A DNA stretch of 12,691 nt from Gallionella sp. (GTDB taxonomy: Bacteria; Pseudomonadota; Gammaproteobacteria; Burkholderiales; Gallionellaceae): positions 1 to 12,691 of the forward strand of contig JAUYGW010000281.1 of NCBI GenBank assembly GCA_030690245.1, in the 5' to 3' direction. A model generated the notes under the pieces. The model worked only from the letters and a program-made list of their open reading frames with translations, was not told where the DNA came from and did not search any database. Shown piece after piece: positions 1-12,684 of this stretch. Every line of letters starts with the position of its first letter. The first letter of the stretch is position 1. The position numbers were made by a program, and so were the translations under genes.

Positions 1-9
1 TCAAAACAA

Positions 10-783
10 TTGGACTCCGGTACATTGAAGCCCCGACCTAATTTCATTAGAAATTTTCCTGCGATGACATCCATCATTCCCCTCAGCGAAGCAAATTCCC
101 TTGAAGAGTTCGTCAAACTTGTTGAATTGCTCCCATTGTTACAGGGTGATTCAATTTACCGAGGTCAAGCAGTTAAGGGCAATCTCATACCTGGTGTTTC
201 CCGAAATAACCGTCGCGAAAATACAACTGCACTGGAGCGCGAAACGCTTAACCAACTCTCCTTGCGAGGAGCAAACCTTTTGAATTCGCCTTTGCAATCG
301 ACATTAGATCTCATGGTAATAGCCCAGCATTCCGGGCTTAAAACTCGCCTACTGGATTGGACAAGCAACCCTCTCGCTGCCCTATGGTTCGCATGTGCTG
401 ACCACATAGAAGGTGACGCATATGTGTACGCCTTAGGTAAAGAACAATTGCTTGTGAGCGACATGTATTCCAGCGATCCATTTGCACAATGTAAGACTCG
501 TGTTTTCCAGCCGCGCCAAAACAATTTGCGGATTGTGGCGCAACAAGGTTGGTTTACGCTTCATAGCTACTCTTCTGAGAATAATGAGTTCATTCCGCTT
601 GAACTCCAAGGAATGATGGAGAACCACACTCTTTTCGAAATCACAATTCCTGAAAAATCTCGTGAAAATATGACCCGCTCTTTAGACCGATACGGCATGA
701 ATCTTTGGACACTCTTTCCAGATTTGGAAGGCCTCTGTCGCCACCTCACTTGGAAACACCATCCCGATAACACAGACAAGTAG
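10..783 (+). CDS. FRG domain-containing protein
   Basis: The protein has the hallmarks of the FRG domain, named for its conserved Phe/Tyr-Arg-Gly motif; the biochemical function of this domain is not established. Counted from the TTG at 10, YRGQ lies at residues 50-53, the central QHSGLKTRLLDW...PLAALWFA block at about 106-128, and a later R-x2-AQQGWFTLH block at about 174-185. There is no signal peptide or membrane segment, so it is probably cytoplasmic. The start is uncertain. The frame is open to the first base of the window, TTG at 10 is possible, and ATG at 64 (giving 239 residues) is the more natural choice, although neither has a clear ribosome binding site. The gene ends in TAG. It is visibly more AT-rich than the genes to its right and abuts repeat DNA, which suggests acquisition by transfer. 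FRG proteins are often found in accessory or prophage-like regions, but no partner gene is visible here. Confidence 0.85.
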   Translation: MDSGTLKPRPNFIRNFPAMTSIIPLSEANSLEEFVKLVELLPLLQGDSIYRGQAVKGNLIPGVSRNNRRENTTALERETLNQLSLRGANLLNSPLQSTLDLMVIAQHSGLKTRLLDWTSNPLAALWFACADHIEGDAYVYALGKEQLLVSDMYSSDPFAQCKTRVFQPRQNNLRIVAQQGWFTLHSYSSENNEFIPLELQGMMENHTLFEITIPEKSRENMTRSLDRYGMNLWTLFPDLEGLCRHLTWKHHPDNTDK

Positions 784-1059: not shown

Positions 1060-1107
1060 CATGCTTCGACAAGCTCAGCATGAACGGTCATAGCTCAACA
1101 CGAACGG
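1060..1107. repeat. Short repeat, two tandem copies, overlapping the mutY 3' end
   Basis: Two 16-bp direct copies, at 1072-1087 and 1092-1107, differ at two positions (AGCTCAGCATGAACGG and AGCTCAACACGAACGG). The first is preceded by TTCGACA, forming the TTCGACAAGCTCAG core at 1065-1078. CATGCT at 1060-1065 and AGCATG at 1077-1082 make a small inverted repeat. A similar core is a common intergenic repeat in several proteobacteria (from memory). The second copy covers the mutY stop codon (1095-1097), so the last few MutY residues and the stop are repeat-derived. Confidence 0.6.
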
Positions 1108-2234
1108 CCTAAATTTTCCAACACCTTCCGCACCGGCGTCGGAATCGCCGCTCGCAAAGCCTCTCCCACATCCAGCCACAAACTGCCCGGCTGCGTGGCC
1201 CGCAAGGGTTTGTGCGACAACTCGATCTTCAGCGGCGTGATGTGCAGCCTGAAGTGCGTGAAAGTGTGGGTGAACGTCGCCAGCCTCTCTCCTTCACTCG
1301 CCATCATCCCGCTGCGCAAGAACCAGTCCCTGGCCGCTGCCTCGTCGTCGAATTGCGGCGGGCACCACAGCCCGCCCCAGATGCCGCTGCCGGGGCGCTT
1401 CTCCAGCAGGATGTCATTGCCGTGCATGAGCAGCAGGAAGATGGCGTGTCGTTCCGGCACGGCCTTGCGCGGGCGCGGCGTGGGCAGCTCCGTGGTGCGG
1501 CCGGTATAGAATGCGACGCAACCGGCCTGCACCGGGCACTCGCCGCATCTCGGCTGGCTGCGCGTGCAGACGGTCGCACCGAGATCCATGAGTGCCTGGG
1601 TGTAGGTGGCGATGTCGGAGTTATTCGATGAACCTTTTTCTCGTCGCTCCCGCGAATGCGGGAGCCCAGTTTTATCTGATGACTGGATTCCCGCCTTCGC
1701 GGGAATGACGGCATTATTATTTTGCGGCAGCAGTGCTTCGGCTTGCTGCCACAGTTGCTCCTCTACTTCCCTGTTGCCAGCCCAGCCCTCGATGCCGCAA
1801 TAGCGCGCCAGTACGCGCCTGACGTTGCCGTCGAGGATCGCGCGGCGCTCGTGAAAAGCCAGCGCGCAGATCGCGGCGGCGGTGGAGCGGCCGATGCCGG
1901 GGAGTTCGAGAATCTGTTCGAAGTTGCGCGGGAAATCGCCGCGATGTTGCCCGACGATTATCCGCGCAGTCGCATGCAGGTTGCGGCCTCTGGCGTAGTA
2001 GCCGAGGCCGCTCCAGTGGGCGAGCACTTGCTCCTCGGTTGCTGCCGCGAGCGAGGCGATGGTCGGGAACGACGCGGTGAAGCGCTGGTAATAGGGGAGG
2101 ACGGTGGCGACCTGCGTCTGTTGCAGCATGATCTCGGACAGCCACACGCGGTAGGCATCCGTGCCCTGCCACGGCAGGTCGTGGCGGCCGTGTGTGCGTT
2201 GCCATGCAATGAGGCGCGAGGCGAAACTATGCAT
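1095..2234 (-). CDS. mutY: Adenine DNA glycosylase MutY with in-frame repeat insertion
   Basis: MutY removes adenine mispaired with 8-oxoguanine in base excision repair. The N-terminal glycosylase domain is complete. WLSEIMLQQTQVATV carries the catalytic-type Glu34 (E. coli E37). The helix-hairpin-helix LPGIGRSTA lies at 111-119. ILDGNVRRVLAR carries Asp135 (E. coli D138). The [4Fe-4S] loop has Cys223, 230, 233 and 239 with C-x6-C-x2-C-x5-C spacing. A C-terminal NUDIX-like 8-oxoG recognition domain follows (about 260-375), including LLEKRPGSGIWGGLW. At 379 residues it is longer than the roughly 350 usual because residues about 172-206 are an extra segment, VIPAKAGIQSS and following, encoded by a palindromic repeat. 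The insertion sits between the glycosylase helices and the helix leading into the iron-sulfur loop, keeps the frame, and leaves every catalytic residue intact. The stop codon lies inside another repeat. It is read after asmA with a 99-bp gap. Confidence 0.95.
   Translation of the reverse strand: MHSFASRLIAWQRTHGRHDLPWQGTDAYRVWLSEIMLQQTQVATVLPYYQRFTASFPTIASLAAATEEQVLAHWSGLGYYARGRNLHATARIIVGQHRGDFPRNFEQILELPGIGRSTAAAICALAFHERRAILDGNVRRVLARYCGIEGWAGNREVEEQLWQQAEALLPQNNNAVIPAKAGIQSSDKTGLPHSRERREKGSSNNSDIATYTQALMDLGATVCTRSQPRCGECPVQAGCVAFYTGRTTELPTPRPRKAVPERHAIFLLLMHGNDILLEKRPGSGIWGGLWCPPQFDDEAAARDWFLRSGMMASEGERLATFTHTFTHFRLHITPLKIELSHKPLRATQPGSLWLDVGEALRAAIPTPVRKVLENLGRSC
1646..1706. repeat. dRS3-like palindromic repeat pair inside mutY
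   Basis: There are two 20-bp hairpins, each with an 8-bp perfect stem and 4-nt loop: 1646-1653 pairing with 1658-1665, and 1687-1694 pairing with 1699-1706. They are separated by 21 bp. The second fits the neisserial dRS3 consensus ATTCCC-N8-GGGAAT exactly, and the first is a related GCTCCCGC...GCGGGAGC version. On the mutY strand the unit reads as VIPAKAGIQ, the typical translation when this repeat lands in a gene. Flanking codons for Asn and Ser runs (about 1617-1721) complete the insertion. Confidence 0.8.
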
Positions 2235-4654: not shown

Positions 4655-6049
4655 TCAGATCACCTTGGAATAGCGCGCGTGCTCGGTGCGCGTGCGCAGG
4701 TATTTGTCGAACACCATGCAGATGTTGCGGATCAGCATGCGTCCCTTGGGGGTCACTTCGATCCATTGCGGAGAGATTTCCAGCAGGCCTTCGTGTTCAT
4801 ATTCGCGCAACTCCTCCATCTCGGTGGCGAAGTACTGGTCGAAGTCGATCAGGTAGGCGATGTTGAACGATTCCTTGGAAAGCTCGAAATGGCACATCAG
4901 CGCCTGGATGATGGCGCGGCGCACCAGGTCGTCGGCGTTCAATTCCAGGCCGCGCATGATGGGCAGTTCATCCCGGTTCAGCGCGTCGTAATAGTCTTCC
5001 AGTTCGCGGTAGTTCTGGCTGTAGGTCGGGCCGACTTTTCCAATGGCACTCACTCCCAGAGCAATGAGGTCGCAGTCGGAATGGGTCGAATAGCCCTGAA
5101 AATTGCGGTGCAACCGGCCCTGGCGCTGCGCCACGGCAAGCTCGTCTTCCGGCTTGGCGAAGTGATCCATGCCGATATACACATAGCCCGCTTCGGTCAG
5201 CTTGCTCACCGCCAGGCTGAGGATGTCCAGCTTGGTTTGCGGGGCGGGCAGATCCTCTTCGTTGATGCGCCGTTGCGGCTTGAAGATGGCCGGCATATGC
5301 GCGTAATTGTAGACGGACAGGCGATCCGGGTTGGCGGCGATCACCTTGTCCAGCGTCACGCCGAAACCTTCCAGCGTCTGCTTGGGCAGGCCGTAAATCA
5401 GATCGATGCTGACCGACTTGAAACCGTTGGCGCGCGCGGCACGGATGACGCCCAGGGTCTCTTCCTCGCTCTGGATGCGGTTCACCGCGCGCTGCACCTC
5501 GGCGTCGAAATCCTGCACGCCGATGCTGATGCGGTTGAAACCTTCCTTGCCGAGCAGCGCGATGGTCGCGTCGCTGACCTTGCGCGGGTCGATCTCGATG
5601 GAATACTCGCCGTCTTCGACCAGTTTGAAGTGCTCGCGTATCGCCGCCATGACCTGGCGAATTTCGTCATCGCTCATGAACGTCGGTGTGCCGCCGCCGA
5701 AGTGCAATTGCTCGACAACCTGTCCCGGCCCGAGCAATTCTGCCTGCATCGCCATTTCCTTGATCAGGTAGCGCACATATTCGGCGGATTGGCTGCGATC
5801 CTAGGTGATGACCTTGTTGCAGGCGCAGTAGAAGCACAGCGTGTTGCAGAACGGGATATGGATATACAGCGACAGCGGGCGTGCGATGCCGCCGATCTCG
5901 CGTTTGGCCACCCATTGGCTGTAGCTCTCGGCATTGAAGGCTTCAATAAAGCGATCTGCGGTTGGATACGAGGTGTAGCGCGGGCCGTTCTTATCCAGCC
6001 TGCGTATTAACTCCAAGTCCACTACCAGTTGATTGACTGGTTCATCCAT
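4655..6049 (-). CDS. hemN: Oxygen-independent coproporphyrinogen III oxidase HemN, interrupted by an in-frame amber codon
   Basis: HemN is the radical-SAM enzyme that converts coproporphyrinogen III to protoporphyrinogen IX without oxygen, in the cytoplasm. The start is ATG 6049 with GGAGG at 6060-6056, spaced 6 nt from it. The N-terminus has the family signature NGPRYTSYPTADRF (21-34), then PFCNTLCFYCAC with the [4Fe-4S] cysteines C68, C72 and C75. Codon 83 (5803-5801) is TAG, after CNKVIT. The same frame continues as DRSQSAEYVRYLIKEMAMQ, then HFGGGTPTF, RISIGVQDFD, IDLIYGLPKQT and the HemN C-terminal domain, ending in TGA. The total of 464 positions is close to E. coli HemN (457). As written, neither piece is active: the first has the cysteines but no barrel, and the second lacks the cysteines. 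AAG (Lys), usual at this place in relatives as I recall, is one base from TAG. An FNR box lies upstream. Confidence 0.92.
5801..5803 (-). other. In-frame amber codon in hemN
   Basis: The minus strand reads ATC ACC TAG GAT CGC, codon 83, six codons after the radical-SAM cysteine cluster. Homology continues in the same frame right after it, so there is no frameshift, only one stop. The context CCTAGG shares CTAGG with the asmA amber. Confidence 0.88.
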
Positions 6050-6103
6050 AAAATACCTCCTGTTAACATTATACATTATGCATGTTAGCCAACCCTGACT
6101 GGT

Positions 6104-6117
6104 TTGATATATGTCAA
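6104..6117. promoter_or_regulatory. FNR box between hemN and fnr
   Basis: TTGATATATGTCAA matches the FNR consensus TTGAT-N4-ATCAA at 9 of 10 fixed positions (G for A at the first base of the right half-site). It is nearly symmetric, so it can serve both directions. Its centre is 61 bp upstream of the hemN ATG and about 95 bp upstream of the fnr ATG. FNR control of hemN is well known in proteobacteria; autoregulation of fnr is an inference from the shared region. Confidence 0.75.
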
Positions 6118-6204
6118 AATTCATGCCATATTCGACAGTCAGGAAGTGGCTGGTGCGAAACCCGCTCGTTCTTCACCACTTCCCACTTTCCAAGGGTAAG
6201 CGTC

Positions 6205-6930
6205 ATGCAACAATCTGTTTCGTCCTTTCGTCGCAAAGCAGCATGCTCCAATTGCAGGCTGCGCGAGCTGTGCCTGCCAGTCGGCCTGAGTGCCGGTGAA
6301 ATGCAGCAGGTGGACGATATCAGCCACCTCAAGCGCGGTTATGCGCGCGGCGACTACCTTTATCGCAGCAACGACAAATTTCAGTCGTTGTACGCCATTC
6401 GCAAAGGCTCGTTCAAGACCCAAGTGCTGCACGAGGATGGGCGCGAGCAAGTGACCGGCTTCCAGATGACCGGTGAAATCATCGGCCTGGATGCGATCTG
6501 CACCGACCACCACACCTGCGATGCGGTGGCGATGGAAAGCAGCGAGGTATGCGAGTTGCCGTTCAACAAGCTGGAGACGTTGAGCCGCGAATTGCCCAGC
6601 CTGCAACGCCACTTGCACAAGATCATGAGCCGCGAAATCGTGCGCGACCAGGGCATCATGTTGCTGCTCGGATCGATGCGCGCCGAAGAACGACTGGCCG
6701 CGTTTCTGCTCAATTTATCACAGCGCCTTGCGGCGCGCGGCTTGTCGCCTACCCAATTCCAGTTGCGCATGTCGCGCCAGGAAATCGGCAGCTATCTGGG
6801 GTTAAAGCTGGAAACCGTCAGCCGCGCGTTTTCGAATTTTCAGGATAATGGCTTGATTAACGTCAGGGCGCGCGCGGTAGAACTGCTTGATTTGCCCGCC
6901 TTGCATGCATTGGTCGGGAAGCAGCAGTAA
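6205..6930 (+). CDS. fnr: FNR-type oxygen-sensing transcriptional regulator (CRP/FNR family)
   Basis: FNR is a cytoplasmic DNA-binding regulator that dimerises when its [4Fe-4S] cluster is intact and controls anaerobic genes. From ATG 6205, with AAGGG about 8 nt upstream, the protein has 241 residues, the family norm. Cluster ligands are visible: C14, C17 and C23 in CSNCRLRELC, and C116 in SSEVCELPF (the E. coli C122 position). The cyclic-nucleotide-like fold spans about 30-145, with the dimerisation helix following (about 140-160). EERLAAFLLNLSQR leads into the helix-turn-helix MSRQEIGSYLGLKLETVSRAF. Its recognition helix has E203, S206 and R207, which match the E-x2-SR of FNR and predict binding to TTGAT half-sites. 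A longer frame from 6082 is open but its extra N-terminus does not look like FNR. It is divergent from hemN across an FNR box. Confidence 0.95.
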   Translation: MQQSVSSFRRKAACSNCRLRELCLPVGLSAGEMQQVDDISHLKRGYARGDYLYRSNDKFQSLYAIRKGSFKTQVLHEDGREQVTGFQMTGEIIGLDAICTDHHTCDAVAMESSEVCELPFNKLETLSRELPSLQRHLHKIMSREIVRDQGIMLLLGSMRAEERLAAFLLNLSQRLAARGLSPTQFQLRMSRQEIGSYLGLKLETVSRAFSNFQDNGLINVRARAVELLDLPALHALVGKQQ

Positions 6931-6963
6931 AGCGCGACAGATGCGGTGATGGGCGCTTTTTTT
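6929..6963 (+). terminator. Intrinsic terminator after fnr
   Basis: A 7-bp stem AAAGCGC (6929-6935) and GCGCTTT (6953-6959) with a 17-nt loop runs directly into seven T residues (6957-6963). It begins at the fnr stop codon. The loop is longer than usual, but the stem-plus-T-run layout is that of an intrinsic terminator. Confidence 0.65.
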
Positions 6964-7057
6964 GCTGCTCATGGCGCATGACGGCAAGTTGCCAACACTT
7001 TGCCGGACAAAACCCAGGTACGCAGGTACTGCAATCTCAACTCACTCAAAAATAACC

Positions 7058-7738
7058 ATGGAACGCAAGCTATATTGGGTTGTTGGCATCCTTTCGATTC
7101 TGATTCTGGTCGGTTCGTTTTTTATGCCAGGGAAACCCGGCGTCCAGAATGATCTGCCATGGCATATCGAACACCCCGCGCCAGGCATGACGCGCATCTT
7201 TGGTCTGACGCTTGAGTCAAGCACCGCCAGCGAAGCGGAACAGCGTTTCCATGAAGAAGCCAAACCCAGTTTATTCAAGTCGCCGGATGGGCAACTGGTC
7301 GCGGAGATGTTCTTCGAGCAGGTTACCCTGGCGGGATTGAAATCCAGAATCGTGATCAATATCGCCGTTCCTGCAGCGGAATTGCAGGCCATGTATGAAC
7401 GCGGCCTGCGTATCAGCGGGACGGGCAGCAGTAAAAAAATCACGCCGGCGCCGGATGATGTAGCCAGGCTGCGCGCGCTGCCGATCGGCAGCCTGACCTA
7501 TATGCCATCGATCCGTCTGGAAGAGGAAATTTTTCTCAAGCGTTTCGGCCAGCCGAGCCAGCGAATCAGGGAAAAGGAAAGCGGCGCAGTCCACTGGCTG
7601 TACCCGCAAGACGGCTTGGACATCACCCTGGGCGGTGAAGAAAAACCCGTGCTGCAATATGTCCCTCCCAAAGATTTCAGCAAGCTGTTGCAGCCCTTGC
7701 TGAACAAAGGCGAAGTCATTAAAAACCCACCCCGGTAA
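7058..7738 (+). CDS. Conserved-looking hypothetical protein with N-terminal membrane anchor
   Basis: I do not recognise this family. From ATG 7058 the protein has 226 residues. Residues about 6-22 (YWVVGILSILILVGSFF) form one uncleaved membrane segment after a short basic start, so the rest (about 25-226) probably lies in the periplasm. The soluble part has no cysteines, and no enzymatic motif stands out. It has a mixed alpha/beta look, with IGSLTYMPSIRLEEEIFLKRFGQPSQRI and a following AVHWLYPQDGLDITL stretch that reads like a strand-rich C-terminal unit. The frame is open from 6962 but the added residues are low quality and overlap the fnr terminator. No strong ribosome binding site is seen. 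It stands alone between the fnr terminator and the hemerythrin promoter region, ends in TAA, and matches its neighbours in base composition. Confidence 0.75.
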   Translation: MERKLYWVVGILSILILVGSFFMPGKPGVQNDLPWHIEHPAPGMTRIFGLTLESSTASEAEQRFHEEAKPSLFKSPDGQLVAEMFFEQVTLAGLKSRIVINIAVPAAELQAMYERGLRISGTGSSKKITPAPDDVARLRALPIGSLTYMPSIRLEEEIFLKRFGQPSQRIREKESGAVHWLYPQDGLDITLGGEEKPVLQYVPPKDFSKLLQPLLNKGEVIKNPPR

Positions 7739-7893: not shown

Positions 7894-7929
7894 AATCGGG
7901 CAATTCATAGAAATTGTGAGGTCGTCGTG

Positions 7930-8346
7930 ATGTCCACATGGACAAAACAGTTAAGCATCGGCAATAGAATTCTCGATTCCGAACACAAAAAATTGCACGG
8001 CATCATTAACCAGATAGTTTGCTCAGTGGCTGCAAGGAATGTTGCGGCTCTGTCGGAGACATTTGAACTGCTGGAAAGTTGTCTATGCGACTATTTTGCA
8101 GTTGAGGAAAATATCGCACAAGCAATAGGCTTTGACTTTACCCAGCACAAGCTTGCGCACCAACATTTGTTGAATGAGTTTCAGCGCATCAGGGGCAAGT
8201 TGATGGCTAGAAATGGCATGTGGTCTGATGAGGAGGGGAAAAATTATGCCCATTCTTTGATGAATTGCTTGATTCAACACATTACGCAAGATGGTAAGCC
8301 GTTAAGGATAGTGCTGGATACCTGTTTGTACGACTTCAATCCCTGA
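7930..8346 (+). CDS. Bacteriohemerythrin with one substituted iron ligand
   Basis: Bacteriohemerythrins are four-helix-bundle diiron proteins that bind O2 and serve in oxygen sensing, storage or delivery. The 138-residue single-domain protein begins MSTWTKQLSIGNRILDSEHKKLH, typical of the family, with H19. It continues with YFAVEENIAQAI (E59), HKLAH (H73, H77) and HITQD (H117, D121). The usual HFxxEE motif reads YFAVEE here: Tyr55 stands where the family has an iron-ligand His (H58 in the Methylococcus capsulatus protein). The other ligands appear present. ATG 7930 is preferred over GTG 7927 because GAGG ending at 7921 is 8 nt upstream. It is followed after 21 bp by the EAL-HDOD gene, so the two are probably co-transcribed. 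The end, YDFNP, matches the YDFKP-type endings I recall in related betaproteobacterial proteins. Confidence 0.9.
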   Translation: MSTWTKQLSIGNRILDSEHKKLHGIINQIVCSVAARNVAALSETFELLESCLCDYFAVEENIAQAIGFDFTQHKLAHQHLLNEFQRIRGKLMARNGMWSDEEGKNYAHSLMNCLIQHITQDGKPLRIVLDTCLYDFNP

Positions 8347-8367
8347 CGGATTTCTGAAGGTTTCCTT

Positions 8368-9594
8368 ATGCAGCCATTTTTTCTCGCGCGCCAGCCTATC
8401 CTAGACCGCAATGAAAACCTGTGCGCTTTCGAGTTGTTATTCCGCGCTAGCAATAATGCGGCAGGGGCGAATGTGTCGGACGATACTCTCGCCACAGCAC
8501 AGGTGATGGTGAATGTGTTCGGTGAAATGGGGATTGCCGAAGTGCTTGGCGCACACAAGGGGTTTATCAACCTGGATGCCGAGTTCCTGTATAGCGACAC
8601 GGTCGAATTGCTGCCCAGGCAGCAAGTGGTGCTTGAGTTGCTGGAAACCATTGTTGTCGATGATGCGGTCATCGCGCGTTGCCGCGAATTGAAAGCAATG
8701 GGATTCAGCCTCGCGTTGGATGACGTGCTGAAGTTCGGCGATGAGTGCAAACCATTGCTCGGCGTGGTGGACGTGGTCAAGCTGGACTTGACGCAGATTG
8801 ACCCTGCCCGATTGCCTGCGCTGGTAAAAAGCTTCAGGCAATACCCGGTAAAGCTGCTGGCGGAAAAGGTGGAAGACCGCGAGCAGGCCCGCCGTTGCAT
8901 GGAAATGGGCTTCGACATGTTTCAGGGCTATTACTTCGCACGCCCGGAGATGCTTTCCGGCAAGCGCGCCGATCCCTCCAAGAAGGCGCTATTGAACATC
9001 CTGACGCTGATGTTGAGCGATGCCGAGAACGAAAAAATCGTGAATGCGTTCAAGGAGCGCCCAATATTGGCCTACAACCTGCTGCGCATGGTGAATTCTG
9101 CGGGTTCCAAGCTGACCACCAAAATCAGTTCGCTCAGTCATGGGTTGATGGTGTTGGGGCGCCGTACGCTACAGCGCTGGGTGCAATTGCTGTTGTATGC
9201 CACCGGCAAGGGGGGGGAAGTGGCCAACCCGTTGATGCAGCTTGCCGCCACGCGCGCCAAGCTGATGGAGCTGATCGCCCAGCAAGCGCGTCCGCGCGAT
9301 TGCGACTATATCGACCGCGCCTTCATGGTGGGCATGTTGTCGTTGCTCGATGTGCTGATGGAGGAGCCGCTGCTGGAAATCCTGGCGCACATGAACCTGC
9401 ATGAAGACATTGAAACAGCGTTGCTGAGGCGCAACGGGGACCTTGGCGAGTTGCTGGCGCTGTGCTGGGAGCTCGAATCGGGTGATGCCGTAGCCGTGCA
9501 GGAAAGGTTGCGCGCCCGTCCCGGCCTGACTGTAGACGCGCTCAATGGAGCACAATTGGAAGCCATGGGCTGGGCCAACAATATCGCCATGTAG
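8368..9594 (+). CDS. EAL and HDOD domain-containing signalling protein (YuxH/CdgJ-like)
   Basis: EAL domains hydrolyse or bind cyclic di-GMP, and HDOD domains are non-catalytic HD-fold modules found in signalling proteins. The 408-residue protein has an N-terminal EAL-type domain (1 to about 195). In place of EAL it has FELLF (21-25), then INLD (67-70), LELLET (89-94), LALDDV (115-120), VKLD (137-140), AEKVED (165-170) and FQGYYFARP (185-193). The HDOD region follows (about 200-380), including SKKALLNILTLM, ERPILAYNLLRMVNSA and FMVGMLSLLDVLM. The loop after DD lacks the usual FG-x-G-x2-S, so activity is doubtful even though the acidic, Asn, Lys and Gln positions are kept. GAAGG lies a few bases before the ATG. 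It is soluble, with no signal or membrane segment. It ends in TAG and follows the hemerythrin gene by 21 bp. Confidence 0.92.
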   Translation: MQPFFLARQPILDRNENLCAFELLFRASNNAAGANVSDDTLATAQVMVNVFGEMGIAEVLGAHKGFINLDAEFLYSDTVELLPRQQVVLELLETIVVDDAVIARCRELKAMGFSLALDDVLKFGDECKPLLGVVDVVKLDLTQIDPARLPALVKSFRQYPVKLLAEKVEDREQARRCMEMGFDMFQGYYFARPEMLSGKRADPSKKALLNILTLMLSDAENEKIVNAFKERPILAYNLLRMVNSAGSKLTTKISSLSHGLMVLGRRTLQRWVQLLLYATGKGGEVANPLMQLAATRAKLMELIAQQARPRDCDYIDRAFMVGMLSLLDVLMEEPLLEILAHMNLHEDIETALLRRNGDLGELLALCWELESGDAVAVQERLRARPGLTVDALNGAQLEAMGWANNIAM

Positions 9595-9596
9595 CT

Positions 9597-9640
9597 GGAA
9601 CTTTCGTAACACACCTTGCTGCGCAAGGATGAGAAGTTCC
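9597..9640 (+). terminator. Two-tier hairpin after the EAL-HDOD gene
   Basis: An outer 7-bp stem GGAACTT (9597-9603) and AAGTTCC (9634-9640) encloses a 6-bp hairpin CCTTGC (9614-9619) and GCAAGG (9623-9628). It starts 2 bp after the TAG. No T run follows, so it may reduce rather than stop read-through into the next three genes, or act as a processing site. Confidence 0.4.
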
Positions 9641-9697
9641 CCAAATTGCAGTTTGCACCCTATTGCTTGTATGAATATTCACAAGAGGCCAGAGAAA

Positions 9698-9769
9698 ATG
9701 CACGCGGAACTATCGAACGATGTCACTGAGCGGCATTTTTCCATGATTGCGGTATCCCGGTACTCATGA
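9698..9769 (+). CDS. Possible 23-residue leader peptide
   Basis: ATG 9698 has GAGG at 9685-9688, 9 nt upstream, the best ribosome binding site in this gap. The short frame (MHAELSNDVTERHFSMIAVS and three more residues) ends at TGA 9767-9769, which overlaps the ATG of the next gene. Such an arrangement could couple translation. No homology is apparent, and a frame this short can arise by chance. Confidence 0.25.
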   Translation: MHAELSNDVTERHFSMIAVSRYS

Positions 9770-10011
9770 TGAAATTTTCCGGATATCACGATCCTGACAT
9801 CTTTATTTCGGTGCGCAAGAATGTCATAACCAATGTTTGCGAGTTAATCGGCATAGTGCATATGACGGAGTGCATCGCTGACGGATATTTATTCGTTAGA
9901 GATAAAGAGCTGTGCCAATTTGAACAGGACGCACCAAAGTGCTTCGAGATGTCAGAACAAGAATTCTCCGAACTCGAGGGAAATGTTTTGGCTTATCTGA
10001 ATGGCGAATAA
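9766..10011 (+). CDS. Small hypothetical protein, 81 residues
   Basis: I do not recognise this protein. It starts with tandem ATG codons (9766 or 9769), is acidic, and has no signal peptide or membrane segment. It has four cysteines (C25, C36, C50, C59) in no obvious metal-binding spacing. The middle, MTECIADGYLFVRDKELCQF, looks like a small alpha/beta fold, and the C-terminus (FEMSEQEFSELEGNVLAYL) like an amphipathic helix. No good ribosome binding site precedes it, but it overlaps a possible leader frame at its start and overlaps the next gene by 11 bp at its end, as expected for an operon member. Its codon use resembles its neighbours. Confidence 0.65.
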   Translation: MMKFSGYHDPDIFISVRKNVITNVCELIGIVHMTECIADGYLFVRDKELCQFEQDAPKCFEMSEQEFSELEGNVLAYLNGE

Positions 10012-11443
10012 GGCAATGGATATTCGTAAACAGCTCATTACCCGGCACGCAATTACGGCATTCACCATGGCTGCCATGTTGGCGTTCCCGTGCATCGTCA
10101 AGGCTGAACTTTCCAGTGAGCCGGCCGATAAATCACGCATCGAAAAAGTCAGCGACGAAGAAATCGCATTGCTGCTGGAACAGCAAAAACTGCTGGTGCC
10201 CAGCTTCCTGGATATGCAACAAAAGCTCAAGCTGTTGCACGATGAGCTGGATGCAGTCAAATTACAACTGGTGCAGTTGGGTGTTAGCCCTTCCAATGCA
10301 GCGGCGCCGATGCTGTTGGCAACGGCAGGTGTACAGAAAAAAAGCCTCACGCCGGCCATTGCTGTGAATCAAATGACGTTGCAACAAGATAGCACGTATC
10401 CGCAAAACGAATTAATTGCAGTGCTTGCGGGGATGCTGTTCATCCTTACCCTATGGCTAGGATCTCGCTATTACATCAAAATAAAATCGCGCAATCGAAC
10501 CTGCTGGCAGCAAGATGCCGGCACAATTCCGAAACCGGCAAGTGATGCCGCACCAAAGATATGTGTATCACCCACCACCAAACAACCTGCTCAGGTTGAT
10601 AGCGGCAAAGCGCAACCTGCCGCTCTGCCGCCCAAGGCAAGCACAGCCAGAAATGCGGCATTTTCACCCGCTCATCCCCATAAACAAATCGAGAAGAAAG
10701 TGTCCGAGGATGATTCAATGCTGGAAGAAGCCGGGCTTTATGCCGCCAATGGCCGCATGGACAAGGCTGCCGGGATATTGCAAGAGATCATCAAGCGGAA
10801 CCCTGCAAAAGTCGACGCCTGGACATTATTGCTATCCGTCTATTCCGCTCTTTGTAAAGTGTCGGACTTTGAGAGCACCGCACGAGAATTTCTGAAGCAC
10901 CACAAAACCAGTCCATCATGGAGCGGAATAAAGGTATTGGGGCGCACCCTGGACCGCGATAACCCGCTATATGCCGATCAAGGTAGCCATATTTCCGCCG
11001 CTCCCTTATTGCCCGATACGCTCAATTGGCATCGCCCCATCGGAGATATTCTGATTGAGATGGGAGTCTTGCCCAAACGGGAGATTCTGAAATACCTTGA
11101 TGATTTCGACCCAAAACAGCATGGGCGCTTCGGAGGGTATCTGGTGGCACGCAAGGCAATTACCATTGCGCAGCTCGATCAAGCCTTGTTGCAACAACAA
11201 GGGGTAAATGCCAATGCCGAAGTGAAACCCGGTGATCTGCCTTCATTGCAGGATATAGAGAAATTTTTGGTTGATTTCGACCCTAAGCAGCATGGAAGTG
11301 TCAGCAAATTTCTGGCATCACACAACATTGTCACGCCAGAACAACTTGGCCAGTTGCTCCGGCAAACATCAAACCAGGGAGCTGCAGCAAAAAATCTGCA
11401 AGCTGATGGCATCACCATTTTTGGCGAGCTGTCCACATCATGA
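10001..11443 (+). CDS. FimV-like membrane protein with TPR-like domain and MshEN-like repeats
   Basis: The 480-residue protein has, in order, a likely signal peptide ending near CIVKA (about 6-35); a coiled-coil-prone stretch (about 50-93, EEIALLLEQQKLL to DELDAVKLQLVQLG); one membrane helix (about 137-154); a low-complexity Ala/Pro/Lys linker (about 171-230); a TPR-like unit (about 240-324, LEEAGLYAANGRMDKAAGIL through LGRTLDRDNPLYA) that closely resembles the C-terminal domain of FimV; and repeats at 346-369, 376-399 and 433-455 that fit the MshEN pattern (x-I/F-G-x2-L-x8-9-hydrophobic-x3-L). FimV-type proteins organise polar type IV pilus and cyclic nucleotide signalling; MshEN modules of MshE-type ATPases bind cyclic di-GMP. 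The start may be ATG 10001 or 10016; neither has a good ribosome binding site. It overlaps the 81-residue gene by 11 bp and the next gene by 4 bp. Confidence 0.8.
   Translation: MANKAMDIRKQLITRHAITAFTMAAMLAFPCIVKAELSSEPADKSRIEKVSDEEIALLLEQQKLLVPSFLDMQQKLKLLHDELDAVKLQLVQLGVSPSNAAAPMLLATAGVQKKSLTPAIAVNQMTLQQDSTYPQNELIAVLAGMLFILTLWLGSRYYIKIKSRNRTCWQQDAGTIPKPASDAAPKICVSPTTKQPAQVDSGKAQPAALPPKASTARNAAFSPAHPHKQIEKKVSEDDSMLEEAGLYAANGRMDKAAGILQEIIKRNPAKVDAWTLLLSVYSALCKVSDFESTAREFLKHHKTSPSWSGIKVLGRTLDRDNPLYADQGSHISAAPLLPDTLNWHRPIGDILIEMGVLPKREILKYLDDFDPKQHGRFGGYLVARKAITIAQLDQALLQQQGVNANAEVKPGDLPSLQDIEKFLVDFDPKQHGSVSKFLASHNIVTPEQLGQLLRQTSNQGAAAKNLQADGITIFGELSTS
11036..11365 (+). repeat. Internal repeats in the FimV-like gene
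   Basis: The sequence DFDPKQHG is encoded twice (11102-11125 and 11273-11296) with nearly the same bases. It sits at the same place in two related segments, each followed by a G/S-x-hydrophobic-L...I-T-x2-QL-x2-L half-motif. A first half-motif at 11036-11107 makes three units in all. The arrangement points to internal duplication. Confidence 0.7.
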
Positions 11444-12684
11444 TGGATTACCTGAAAAAGCTCCCTTCTGTTCATATTTGGCTACTTTCCATTGCTGTTT
11501 CCGTAGTCGTGATGGAGAGCATCGCGGGTGGTATGGGAGTGCTGCTGAGAGGGGAGGTTACATATGACTATCTCCTGATTGGTTTTGTCTCTTCCCTATT
11601 TGTCGCAGGCTTGGCCGGAGGCTTCTCGACTTTCTTTTTAGCCCAGCAAAGAAAGATTGAAGCCGGTTTTCATCTTGCCGCGACCGCTTTTGAAGCGCAT
11701 AAAGACACGTCGATTGCCGGCGCACCAGTGAAGGAGGATACCGAAGAGGTTATCCGCTACGCTGCCGCGCCGCGCGATATCGCCGAACCCAATACGACGG
11801 GAAAGCGAATCTGCAATGGCGAAGCAGAAACAGGCATCAGGCGGGCTATCAGAAACCTCGATGTATTGCCCGCAATGCCGGTCATTGCGCAAAGGCTGCT
11901 GGCGTTAAATCTGGATACCGACGAAGGCGAACGGGCGCTGCTGGTACTGATCGAGCAGGATCCGCAAATTGCGGCAAAAATCCTCGGCTTGGCCAATTCG
12001 GCGATGACCGGCGCATCGCGCCAGATAACGACTGTGAGGGGCGCTGCGATACTGCTGGGCTCTAAACGTGTCCAGTCGGTCGCTACCGGTATTGCCATCA
12101 TTTCCCTGATGGACAAGACACCCGCAGGTGAGTTTAATGTTCATGACTTTTGGTTGCACGGCGTCCGTATTGCATTTGCCGCGCAGGGTATTGCACGGTT
12201 CATGTCGGCAGAAATGCGGCCCCAGGATGACCAAATATTTCTTGCCGGCATGCTGCACGACATCGGCTATCTCGTGCTGGCCTACCTTGACCCAAAGCTT
12301 AGCGGCAAGCTACACAACCGCTTGGCTGCGGAACCCGAGCGTCCGGTAATGGAGGTTGAACGGGAAGTCCTGGATATATGTCACGATGAACTGGGTGCGG
12401 AGCTGGCACGCCACTGGAATTTGCCTGAGGAAATCATCACCGTGCTGCGTTACCACCATAGCCCGGAGGCAACCGAAGCCGCAGTAGGACAGCCGCTGGT
12501 GCGCATGATCAACCTCGCGCAAAAACTGCTGCCCTCTTTTGGTGTTACCGAATATGTAACTTCCGGTATCAGCACCGAGGAGTGGGAAGCATTGGGTATA
12601 AGCCCATCCAAAGCAGAGGAAGTGAAAGAGCAGGTAACCGAGCGAGCGGAACAGGCCATACAGTTGGTCAGTTCGTTTGCCTGA
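11440..12684 (+). CDS. Membrane-anchored HDOD domain protein
   Basis: The 414-residue protein has two N-terminal membrane helices (about 11-36 and 42-67) joined by a very short TYDYLL-containing loop, a linker (about 70-130), and a C-terminal HDOD domain (about 137-330) in the cytoplasm. The HDOD signature is clear: LPAMPVIAQRLLAL (143-156), IEQDPQIAAKILGLANSA (171-188), AAILLGSKRV (202-211) and MLHDIGYLVL with HD at 273-274. HDOD domains usually lack hydrolase activity and act in signalling, motility and cell-cycle control. The 2-TM head resembles those seen ahead of GGDEF or kinase domains in betaproteobacteria (from memory), so it may sense a membrane signal. The start codon overlaps the stop of the FimV-like gene (ATGA), so translation is probably coupled. 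It ends in TGA just inside the window. Confidence 0.9.
   Translation: MMDYLKKLPSVHIWLLSIAVSVVVMESIAGGMGVLLRGEVTYDYLLIGFVSSLFVAGLAGGFSTFFLAQQRKIEAGFHLAATAFEAHKDTSIAGAPVKEDTEEVIRYAAAPRDIAEPNTTGKRICNGEAETGIRRAIRNLDVLPAMPVIAQRLLALNLDTDEGERALLVLIEQDPQIAAKILGLANSAMTGASRQITTVRGAAILLGSKRVQSVATGIAIISLMDKTPAGEFNVHDFWLHGVRIAFAAQGIARFMSAEMRPQDDQIFLAGMLHDIGYLVLAYLDPKLSGKLHNRLAAEPERPVMEVEREVLDICHDELGAELARHWNLPEEIITVLRYHHSPEATEAAVGQPLVRMINLAQKLLPSFGVTEYVTSGISTEEWEALGISPSKAEEVKEQVTERAEQAIQLVSSFA

What the first reader, a model, noticed from the sequence alone, without database searches (positions are those of the whole stretch)
7930..12684. Candidate O2/diiron-to-cyclic-di-GMP signalling module
Five to six co-directional genes join a bacteriohemerythrin, an EAL-HDOD protein, an orphan small protein, a FimV-like protein with MshEN-like repeats, and a membrane HDOD protein. 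The last three reading frames overlap. Each family is known; I do not recognise this combination. An oxygen or redox input, two HDOD outputs and a possible cyclic di-GMP reader in the envelope would form a complete circuit, perhaps controlling pili or aerotaxis. The functional link is inference from gene order.
Basis: partly seen in the sequence, partly recalled or inferred. Interest (0 to 1): 0.7.

Follow-up and report, generated by a model that had tools for sequence, protein, structure and literature searches.

The report
Two neighbouring pilus-and-second-messenger gene pairs
In a relative of freshwater iron-oxidising bacteria, a gene pair that may break down the messenger cyclic di-GMP lies beside a second pair that looks pilus-related, with a dead gene between them; the supposed oxygen sensor lacks key iron-binding residues, so one oxygen-sensing circuit is not shown.

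Summary
The gene order is real; the reading as one complete O2 circuit is only partly supported. The window is from a Gallionellaceae-type metagenome-assembled genome. (1) The "orphan" 81-aa ORF is the tail of an HDOD gene with two internal stretches missing, so four intact genes remain. (2) The hemerythrin belongs to a clade in which one iron-binding His is Tyr or Cys (97 of 103 sequences) and the bridging Asp is Gly, Ser or Ala in 85 of 103; it misses the curated bacteriohemerythrin cut-off. (3) Hemerythrin lies directly upstream of the EAL-HDOD gene in 5 of 12 genomes with that orthologue, in two of them with one partner broken. (4) FimV-like plus membrane HDOD is a separate pair in 5 of 158 family genomes; in one it sits in a pilus-type cluster, in another the HDOD partner carries GGDEF. 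(5) The c-di-GMP-binding (MshEN) motif of the FimV-like protein is altered in a conserved way, so binding is doubtful. The full order was seen in no other genome; G175 keeps a partial, decayed version. Best reading: two c-di-GMP/pilus modules side by side, loosely linked.

The parts
7927..8346 (+). Hr: single-domain hemerythrin of a modified-ligand clade (H20, Y56, E60, H74, H78, H118, then D122-G123 in place of HxxxxD); start GTG 7927 or ATG 7930
8368..9594 (+). EAL-HDOD protein (408 aa), probable c-di-GMP phosphodiesterase; E22, N68, E90/E93, D118-D119, K138, E166 and Q186 line up with a solved EAL domain
   Evidence: dN/dS 0.19 against G142 and 0.21 against G017
9698..9769 (+). N-terminal remnant of an HDOD gene (23 codons, then stop)
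   Evidence: DNA match to the start of full HDOD genes of G175 and G098; positions
9730..10011 (+). Rest of the same HDOD gene, in another frame, after loss of two internal stretches; holds the 'orphan' ORF 9766-10011
   Evidence: a 91% identical short copy from another assembly shows the same second junction
10016..11443 (+). FimV-like protein (475 aa): signal-like segment, TM-like segment near residue 132, TPR-like region, altered MshEN repeat pair (341-364 and 371-394); lacks the FimV_N domain that many relatives carry
11440..12684 (+). TM-HDOD: two TM-like segments plus HDOD domain; start overlaps the FimV-like stop by 4 nt

Best explanation
The segment is two c-di-GMP-linked gene pairs placed side by side, with a dead HDOD gene between them. 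Pair 1 is a non-canonical hemerythrin plus an EAL-HDOD protein. The EAL-HDOD protein most likely hydrolyses c-di-GMP (inferred from retained residues and from characterised proteins of the same architecture). The hemerythrin is likely its partner and senses redox state, NO or iron rather than binding O2 reversibly (inferred). Pair 2 is an inner-membrane FimV-like scaffold whose gene overlaps that of a membrane HDOD protein (overlapping frames seen in genomes of three genera, which suggests translational coupling), and which I expect to gather signalling and motor proteins of a type IV-type pilus, as HubP/FimV do (inferred). Together they would lower c-di-GMP near a pilus base when the hemerythrin signal changes; this link between the pairs is the weakest step.
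For: Pair 1: Hr lies directly upstream of EAL-HDOD in G000, G142 and G016, as a broken copy in G017, and, as another Hr subtype before a broken EAL-HDOD, in G175: 5 of 12 genomes with the orthologue. dN/dS is 0.19-0.34 for Hr and 0.19-0.21 for EAL-HDOD. Single-domain Hr near HDOD genes: 8 of 85 within 3 kb, 1.47 expected; 4 of 61, 0.75 expected, when three genomes with cases known beforehand are left out. Pair 2: FimV-like directly followed by TM-HDOD in G000, G017, G080, G070 and G062; dN/dS about 0.25 for both against G017. In G080 it sits among a T2SSE/MshEN ATPase, a GspF/PilC-like protein and prepilins. In G062 the partner is TM-GGDEF-HDOD. More distant clusters: GGDEF-EAL, HDOD, FimV-like in G031 and G124, the same with an EAL match in G160, and HDOD, FimV-like in G004. 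Link between pairs: G175 has Hr, broken EAL-HDOD, intact HDOD, then codons resembling the start of the FimV-like gene.
Against: The full order was seen in no other genome. In G017 and G080 (and G065, G087) EAL-HDOD and FimV-like genes are on different contigs, far from the contig ends in G017. In 7 of 12 genomes EAL-HDOD has no Hr in the fetched flank (only 1.9 kb upstream in G062), and in 5 of these it sits beside a hisC-like gene. Of 9 loci with Tyr/Cys-type Hr read, 2 have EAL-HDOD, 1 an HDOD gene, 1 (G008) an EAL-domain protein within 1.2 kb, 5 none. One distant FimV-like gene (G164) has no HDOD neighbour. The MshEN motif is altered. EAL loop 6 departs from the canonical sequence (recalled). 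No expression data; no structure model could be made.
Confidence: 0.42

Rival explanations
1. One reading: one operon in which the hemerythrin senses O2 and drives EAL-HDOD, the HDOD outputs and a FimV-like c-di-GMP reader.
For: All genes point one way with short gaps; no terminator-like site on the + strand between 7927 and 12653 (a simple consensus scan); partial order in G175.
Against: A His ligand and the bridging Asp are replaced; the middle HDOD gene is dead; the halves are unlinked elsewhere; the MshEN motif lacks key residues.
Confidence: 0.12
2. Decaying neighbourhood: the genes are neighbours by history in a lineage with many HDOD, EAL and hemerythrin paralogues, without a shared function.
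For: Broken Hr in G017, broken EAL-HDOD in G175 and split EAL-HDOD in G080, dead HDOD in the window, FimV-like remnant in G175; EAL-HDOD beside a hisC-like gene in 5 genomes; the Hr-HDOD enrichment is modest once known cases are left out.
Against: Purifying selection on the four intact genes; Hr before EAL-HDOD in 5 of 12 genomes; FimV-like/TM-HDOD adjacency in five genomes of four genera.
Confidence: 0.3
3. The FimV-like protein is a pure scaffold whose MshEN-derived repeat no longer binds c-di-GMP, so the second pair does not read the messenger (compatible with the best explanation).
For: Strict motif in 0 of 116 and one relaxed half in 5 of 116 homologues; the Gln of the first half is mostly Phe and the Gly of the second half mostly Lys/Arg; below the NCBIfam cut-off.
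Against: Spacing and most other motif positions are kept (92 of 116 have two halves with at most one deviation each); the distant cousin in G124 passes the cut-off at 65.6 bits.
Confidence: 0.4

Closest known systems
ZpdA and CdgJ (EAL-HDOD phosphodiesterases of Vibrio cholerae)
   Same: N-terminal EAL, C-terminal HDOD; CdgJ represses surface MshA pili (passages of PMC12607878; PMC4624765)
   Different: Here the gene can pair with a hemerythrin; activity is untested; loop 6 departs from the canonical EAL sequence (recalled)
[quoted passage not shown]
   Same: Hemerythrin tied to c-di-GMP turnover; Bhr-HD-GYP is from an iron oxidiser (passages of PMC9388753)
   Different: Separate genes rather than a fusion; EAL rather than GGDEF or HD-GYP (that review knew of no Hr-EAL protein); ligand set altered
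HubP/FimV polar landmark proteins
   Same: Predicted TM segment and cytoplasmic TPR-like region; many relatives carry FimV_N; HubP recruits and activates the phosphodiesterase PdeB, which affects MSHA pili (passages of PMC9061725)
   Different: The window protein lacks FimV_N and matched no FimV model in NCBIfam; it has an MshEN-derived C-terminus instead
MshEN domain of MshE/PilB
   Same: Paired 24-residue motifs; best solved match of the family profile is MshE 5htl, E 0.0039
   Different: First-half Gln is mostly Phe and Arg mostly Pro, second-half Gly mostly Lys/Arg, spacing 30 rather than 29 in the window protein (motif from passages of PMC5013675)
Mycobacterial hemerythrin-like protein (Mka HLP)
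   Same: Four His, two Glu and a Tyr (passages of PMC8913304) resemble H20, H74, H78, H118, E60, D122, Y56 here
   Different: Not among the PDB matches of the clade profile; order of ligands not compared; that paper states the Tyr ligand is not seen outside mycobacteria

Membership tests
Bacteriohemerythrin (O2-binding) | Score above the NF033749 cut-off (84 bits) | tested here: not met
   54.2 bits; the broader TIGR02481 (58.2, cut-off 51.75) and PF01814 (29.3, cut-off 25.3) are met
Bacteriohemerythrin (O2-binding) | Ligand motif H-HxxxE-HxxxH-HxxxxD | tested here: not met
   H20, Y56, E60, H74, H78, H118, G123; Tyr/Cys in 97 of 103 and no Asp at the last position in 91 of 103, gaps included
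EAL phosphodiesterase with HDOD (ZpdA/CdgJ type) | N-terminal EAL and C-terminal HDOD over cut-off | tested here: met
   PF00563 62.4 (31.3), PF08668 34.8 (22.9)
EAL phosphodiesterase with HDOD (ZpdA/CdgJ type) | Catalytic residues E, N, E, DD, K, E, Q | tested here: met
   All line up with chain 6ifq; positions; which residues are catalytic is recalled
EAL phosphodiesterase with HDOD (ZpdA/CdgJ type) | Hydrolysis of c-di-GMP | not testable with these tools
   needs purified protein
FimV/HubP | FimV_N or LysM periplasmic region | tested here: not met
   No match in the window protein; G017 and G080 match PF25800 below its cut-off of 27 (19.9 and 25.7 bits), P0198 above it (31.9)
FimV/HubP | Cytoplasmic TPR region | tested here: inconclusive
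   TPR models at E 0.0004-0.002, below Pfam cut-offs
MshEN c-di-GMP receptor | RLGxx(LVI)2xxG(LVI)2xxxxLxxxLxxQ, twice, 5-residue spacer | tested here: not met
   0 of 116 strict; the window halves deviate from the relaxed motif at position 24 and at position 10, spacer one longer; NF053729 33.0, cut-off 38
HDOD proteins (TM-HDOD) | PF08668 over cut-off | tested here: met
   164.2 bits, cut-off 22.9
MSHA-type pilus module | Pilus motor and prepilin genes beside the pair | tested here: inconclusive
   Seen in G080 only; the ATPase and GspF-like protein there stay below the equivalog cut-offs of PilB and GspF and the label MSHA is recalled; not seen beside the pair in the window, in G017 (after a dnaE-like gene, named by eye), G070 or G062

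The most novel reading that the evidence does not exclude
Gallionellaceae hold a clade of hemerythrins with a new metal site (Tyr/Cys in place of an iron-binding His, and the fourth-helix carboxylate moved by one residue) that acts in trans as a redox, NO or iron sensor for an EAL-HDOD phosphodiesterase, and a FimV-like scaffold with a remodelled MshEN fold passes this to a pilus.
Probability: 0.2. Interest if true: 0.65.

Novelty: new variant of a known kind. Interest (0 to 1): 0.4.

Why it matters
Iron oxidisers must hold position in opposing Fe(II) and O2 gradients, and why one of them carries so many hemerythrin genes is stated as unknown (passages of PMC3770913). A hemerythrin clade with a conserved altered metal site, in some genomes beside a likely c-di-GMP phosphodiesterase, gives a concrete protein pair to test. 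The FimV-like/HDOD pair, in one genome inside a pilus-type cluster, suggests a role for an HDOD protein in pilus control.

Tried and rejected
Orphan small protein: rejected. Orf81/FimV-like overlap as translational coupling: rejected, start codon artefact. The internal deletions as an assembly error: made unlikely by a 91% identical short copy from another assembly with the same second junction; the first junction is not visible in that protein. Loss of FimV_N as a local accident: rejected; P0109-P0119 (439-477 aa) carry no precomputed PF25800 match. Selection test on orf81: not informative, since most divergence may predate the deletion. FNR control of the cluster: no FNR-box-like site just upstream of Hr; the best site before a gene start lies between hemN and fnr. 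The first FimV-like dN/dS was out of frame and was redone. RNA families: none at gathering threshold in the window. Structure models: jobs lost, so no fold search was made.

Dropped rows and limits: one search left out five short rows (two places of G017, each twice, and one cut locus). Searches used 99 of the 135 HDOD rows (rows weaker than E 1e-8 left out, except the window-type EAL-HDOD of G142) and 84 of the 123 hemerythrin rows (frames of at most 260 aa) plus the G142 window-type Hr. I chose the 12 genomes after I had seen Hr beside HDOD genes in G142, G017 and G009. Within 3 kb: all 12 genomes 8 of 85, 1.47 expected; without those three 4 of 61, 0.75 expected (Poisson 0.007, or 0.04 when two Hr beside one HDOD gene count once); with all 135 HDOD rows, 8 of 85 against 2.07 and 4 of 61 against 1.14. 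Positions are treated as random and independent. Gene calls in relatives were made by longest open frames, so neighbours may be missed. Hit lists were cut off by the tool after the best rows. One search scored only the 8000 candidates sharing most words.
Full report
SETTING. The window is contig 48 of a 2.34-Mb, 357-contig genome, 82.5% complete. A relative of its FimV-like gene in a named record (40% identity) is from a Gallionellaceae MAG, and a 93% identical hemerythrin is labelled Gallionella sp., so it probably comes from a relative of freshwater iron oxidisers. Five forward ORFs run from 7927 to 12684; the contig ends 7 nt after the last stop. Contig 56 of the same genome begins with an HDOD gene that aligns to the gene following TM-HDOD in relative G017 (80% DNA identity), starting almost where contig 48 stops, so the cluster probably continues there (inference).

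THE SMALL ORF IS A DEAD HDOD GENE. In 150 family genomes (own genome included), 33 match the 81-aa ORF; 32 of the 36 rows lie in frames of 270-403 aa, the others being the window itself, G020 (148 aa) and two short frames. Those read in context are HDOD proteins by similarity and two of them by Pfam. At DNA level, window 9629-9729, 9730-9791 and 9819-10057 align in order to three separate blocks of the G175 locus, so two internal stretches are missing. The start (ATG 9698) survives but runs into a stop after 23 codons, and the rest is in another frame. A 91-aa protein, 91% identical and with the same second junction, exists in another assembly, so a local assembly fault is unlikely. Whether the tail is still made is unknown.

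THE HEMERYTHRIN IS NOT CANONICAL. Aligned to DcrH (2avk), the ligand positions read H20, Y56, E60, H74, H78, H118 and G123, with D122 one residue early. Among 45 distinct hemerythrins in fetched loci, 14 share the Tyr/Cys change and all 14 lack the Asp; 11 have Asn at the third His, 12 have Gln at the fourth (some with further changes), and 8 are canonical (my count of its table; the set leans to relatives of the query). Among 102 database homologues plus the query, the second His position is Tyr in 89, Cys in 8, His in 6; the Asp position is Gly 46, Ser 31, Asp 12, Ala 8, others or gaps 6. In 93 of the 94 Tyr/Cys sequences that reach that far, the residue one earlier is Asp or Glu (79 and 14); rows with the canonical His also have Glu there (7 of 7, DcrH included), so this is only suggestive. 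Three His bind Fe1, two bind Fe2, and O2 binds Fe2 (passages of PMC9388753); that the replaced His is one of the Fe2 pair is recalled. A 2016 survey noted ligand variation in 106 single-domain hemerythrins, beta-proteobacteria included (passage of PMC4919030), so variation as such is known. A Tyr ligand has been described as not seen outside mycobacterial hemerythrin-like proteins (passages of PMC8913304). O2 binding is therefore not to be assumed.

PAIR 1. The EAL-HDOD protein keeps the E, N, E, DD, K, E and Q that line up with a solved EAL domain, and its architecture is that of ZpdA, an active phosphodiesterase, and CdgJ (passages of PMC12607878). Orthologues at 63% identity or more occur in 12 of 150 genomes. 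Hr is directly upstream in the window, G142 and G016, as a broken copy in G017, and as another subtype before a broken EAL-HDOD in G175. The other 7 show no Hr in the fetched flanks (only 1.9 kb upstream in G062), and in 5 of these the gene sits beside a hisC-like gene (hisC is named by eye). dN/dS is 0.19 for Hr against G142 and 0.34 against G174, and 0.19-0.21 for EAL-HDOD. Of 9 loci with Tyr/Cys-type Hr read, 2 have EAL-HDOD, 1 an HDOD gene, 1 an EAL-domain protein within 1.2 kb and 5 none, so this Hr often stands alone. In 12 well-assembled genomes, 8 of 85 single-domain hemerythrins lie within 3 kb of an HDOD gene against 1.47 expected. I had chosen those genomes after seeing such cases in three of them; without the three it is 4 of 61 against 0.75 (Poisson 0.007; 0.04 if two Hr at one HDOD gene count once), and weaker still if all weak HDOD rows are counted. 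The association is thus modest. Because of this recount I lowered the best explanation from 0.45 to 0.42 and raised the decay rival from 0.28 to 0.30.

PAIR 2. The FimV-like gene starts at 10016 (475 aa). It has a signal-like segment, a TM-like segment, a TPR-like region and, at the C-terminus, an MshEN-derived repeat. It lacks the FimV_N domain that G017 and many relatives carry; against G017 the loss is 357 nt, in frame (my arithmetic), and it is shared with proteins of similar length. In 158 family genomes, 24 have a FimV-like gene at E <= 1e-13; in five it is directly followed by TM-HDOD (the window, G017, G080, G070, G062). The frames overlap by 4 nt in the window, G017 and G080 and by about 8 nt in G070; in G062 there is a 64-nt gap. 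In G062 the partner is a TM-GGDEF-HDOD protein. In G080 the pair lies in a pilus-type cluster: T2SSE/MshEN ATPase, GspF/PilC-like protein, FimV-like, TM-HDOD, HDOD, then prepilins; that it is MSHA-like is judged by eye. Other FimV-like genes follow a PilB-type ATPase gene in G070, G065 and G099. More distant clusters have the order GGDEF-EAL, HDOD, FimV-like in G031 and G124, an EAL match, HDOD and FimV-like in G160, and HDOD, FimV-like in G004; a fifth such FimV-like gene, in G164, has no HDOD neighbour. Published HubP/FimV proteins recruit c-di-GMP enzymes (passages of PMC9061725 and PMC10212136).

IS THE FIMV-LIKE PROTEIN A C-DI-GMP READER? The published motif is RLGxx(L/V/I)2xxG(L/V/I)2xxxxLxxxLxxQ, twice with a 5-residue spacer (passages of PMC5013675). 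Of 116 homologues (the window's own record included), 0 have the strict motif, 5 have one relaxed half, none a relaxed pair; 92 have two halves with at most one deviation each, spaced 28-31. The commonest deviations are Gln to Phe in the first half and Gly to Lys/Arg in the second. Shuffled sequences give a one-deviation half in 3% of cases against 97% of real ones. The fold is therefore probably kept and the binding chemistry probably changed (inference). The best solved match of the family profile is MshE 5htl (E 0.0039). The FimV-like protein of G124 passes the curated cut-off (65.6 bits) and is the better candidate reader.

ARE THE TWO PAIRS ONE SYSTEM? For: same direction, small gaps, and G175, where Hr, a broken EAL-HDOD and an intact HDOD gene are followed by codons resembling the start of the FimV-like gene (MNIRK..QHAIT). 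Against: in G017, G080, G065 and G087 the two genes are on different contigs, in G017 far from the ends, and no other genome showed the whole order. The pattern is a loose neighbourhood under turnover: broken Hr in G017, broken EAL-HDOD in G175, broken HDOD here.

LITERATURE. No held paper has both 'bacteriohemerythrin' and 'HDOD'. Searches for HDOD with EAL, hemerythrin, FimV, pili, MSHA, and for MshEN with FimV showed no paper on this combination in the rows listed (15 of 19, 4 of 5, 12 of 27, 12 of 110 and 10 of 78 papers). The library lacks most subscription journals. Papers named here were seen as passages only.

VERDICT. Most likely these are two c-di-GMP/pilus-linked pairs with a dead gene between them and a hemerythrin whose metal site is not that of an O2 carrier. 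The modified hemerythrin clade and the FimV-like/HDOD coupling are the parts worth following. Interest 0.4.

Noticed in passing
6082-6930 (+) and 4655-6010 (-): An fnr-type regulator (NF008365, 244.8 bits, cut-off 228) lies divergent from a hemN-like gene (named by eye), with an FNR-box-like site TTGATATATGTCAA at 6104-6117 (one mismatch). The window has 10 such sites with up to 2 mismatches against 5.5 expected; 11 of 200 shuffles had as many.
   Followed up: partly
6962-7738 (+): A 258-aa ORF between fnr and the hemerythrin has no Pfam or NCBIfam match; by eye one TM segment near the likely start. It matched nothing in the fetched loci searched.
   Followed up: partly
Gallionellaceae loci, e.g. 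L107, L111, L142 (Asn) and L108, L113:852-1250, L143 (Gln): Other hemerythrin subgroups replace the third iron-binding His by Asn or the fourth by Gln; 37 of 45 aligned copies depart from the canonical set (a biased sample).
   Followed up: partly
L221:6254-8071 (-): In G062 the TM-HDOD orthologue has a GGDEF domain between the membrane part and the HDOD domain.
   Followed up: partly
window 1642-1710: A 29-nt inverted repeat with 11-nt spacer (83% complementary) lies inside the mutY-like gene 1095-2234 (-) (named by eye) and is read through in frame as 'VIPAKAGIQ...'; it looks like a dispersed palindromic element inserted in a coding gene.
   Followed up: partly
window 1-783 (+): An FRG-domain protein (PF08867, 70.3 bits) at the contig start.
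   Followed up: no
L220, L230, L241: A FimV-like paralogue directly follows a PilB/GspE-type ATPase gene; in L220 and L230 it lies near a purM-like gene (named by eye), as do FimV-like genes of several other family genomes.
   Followed up: partly
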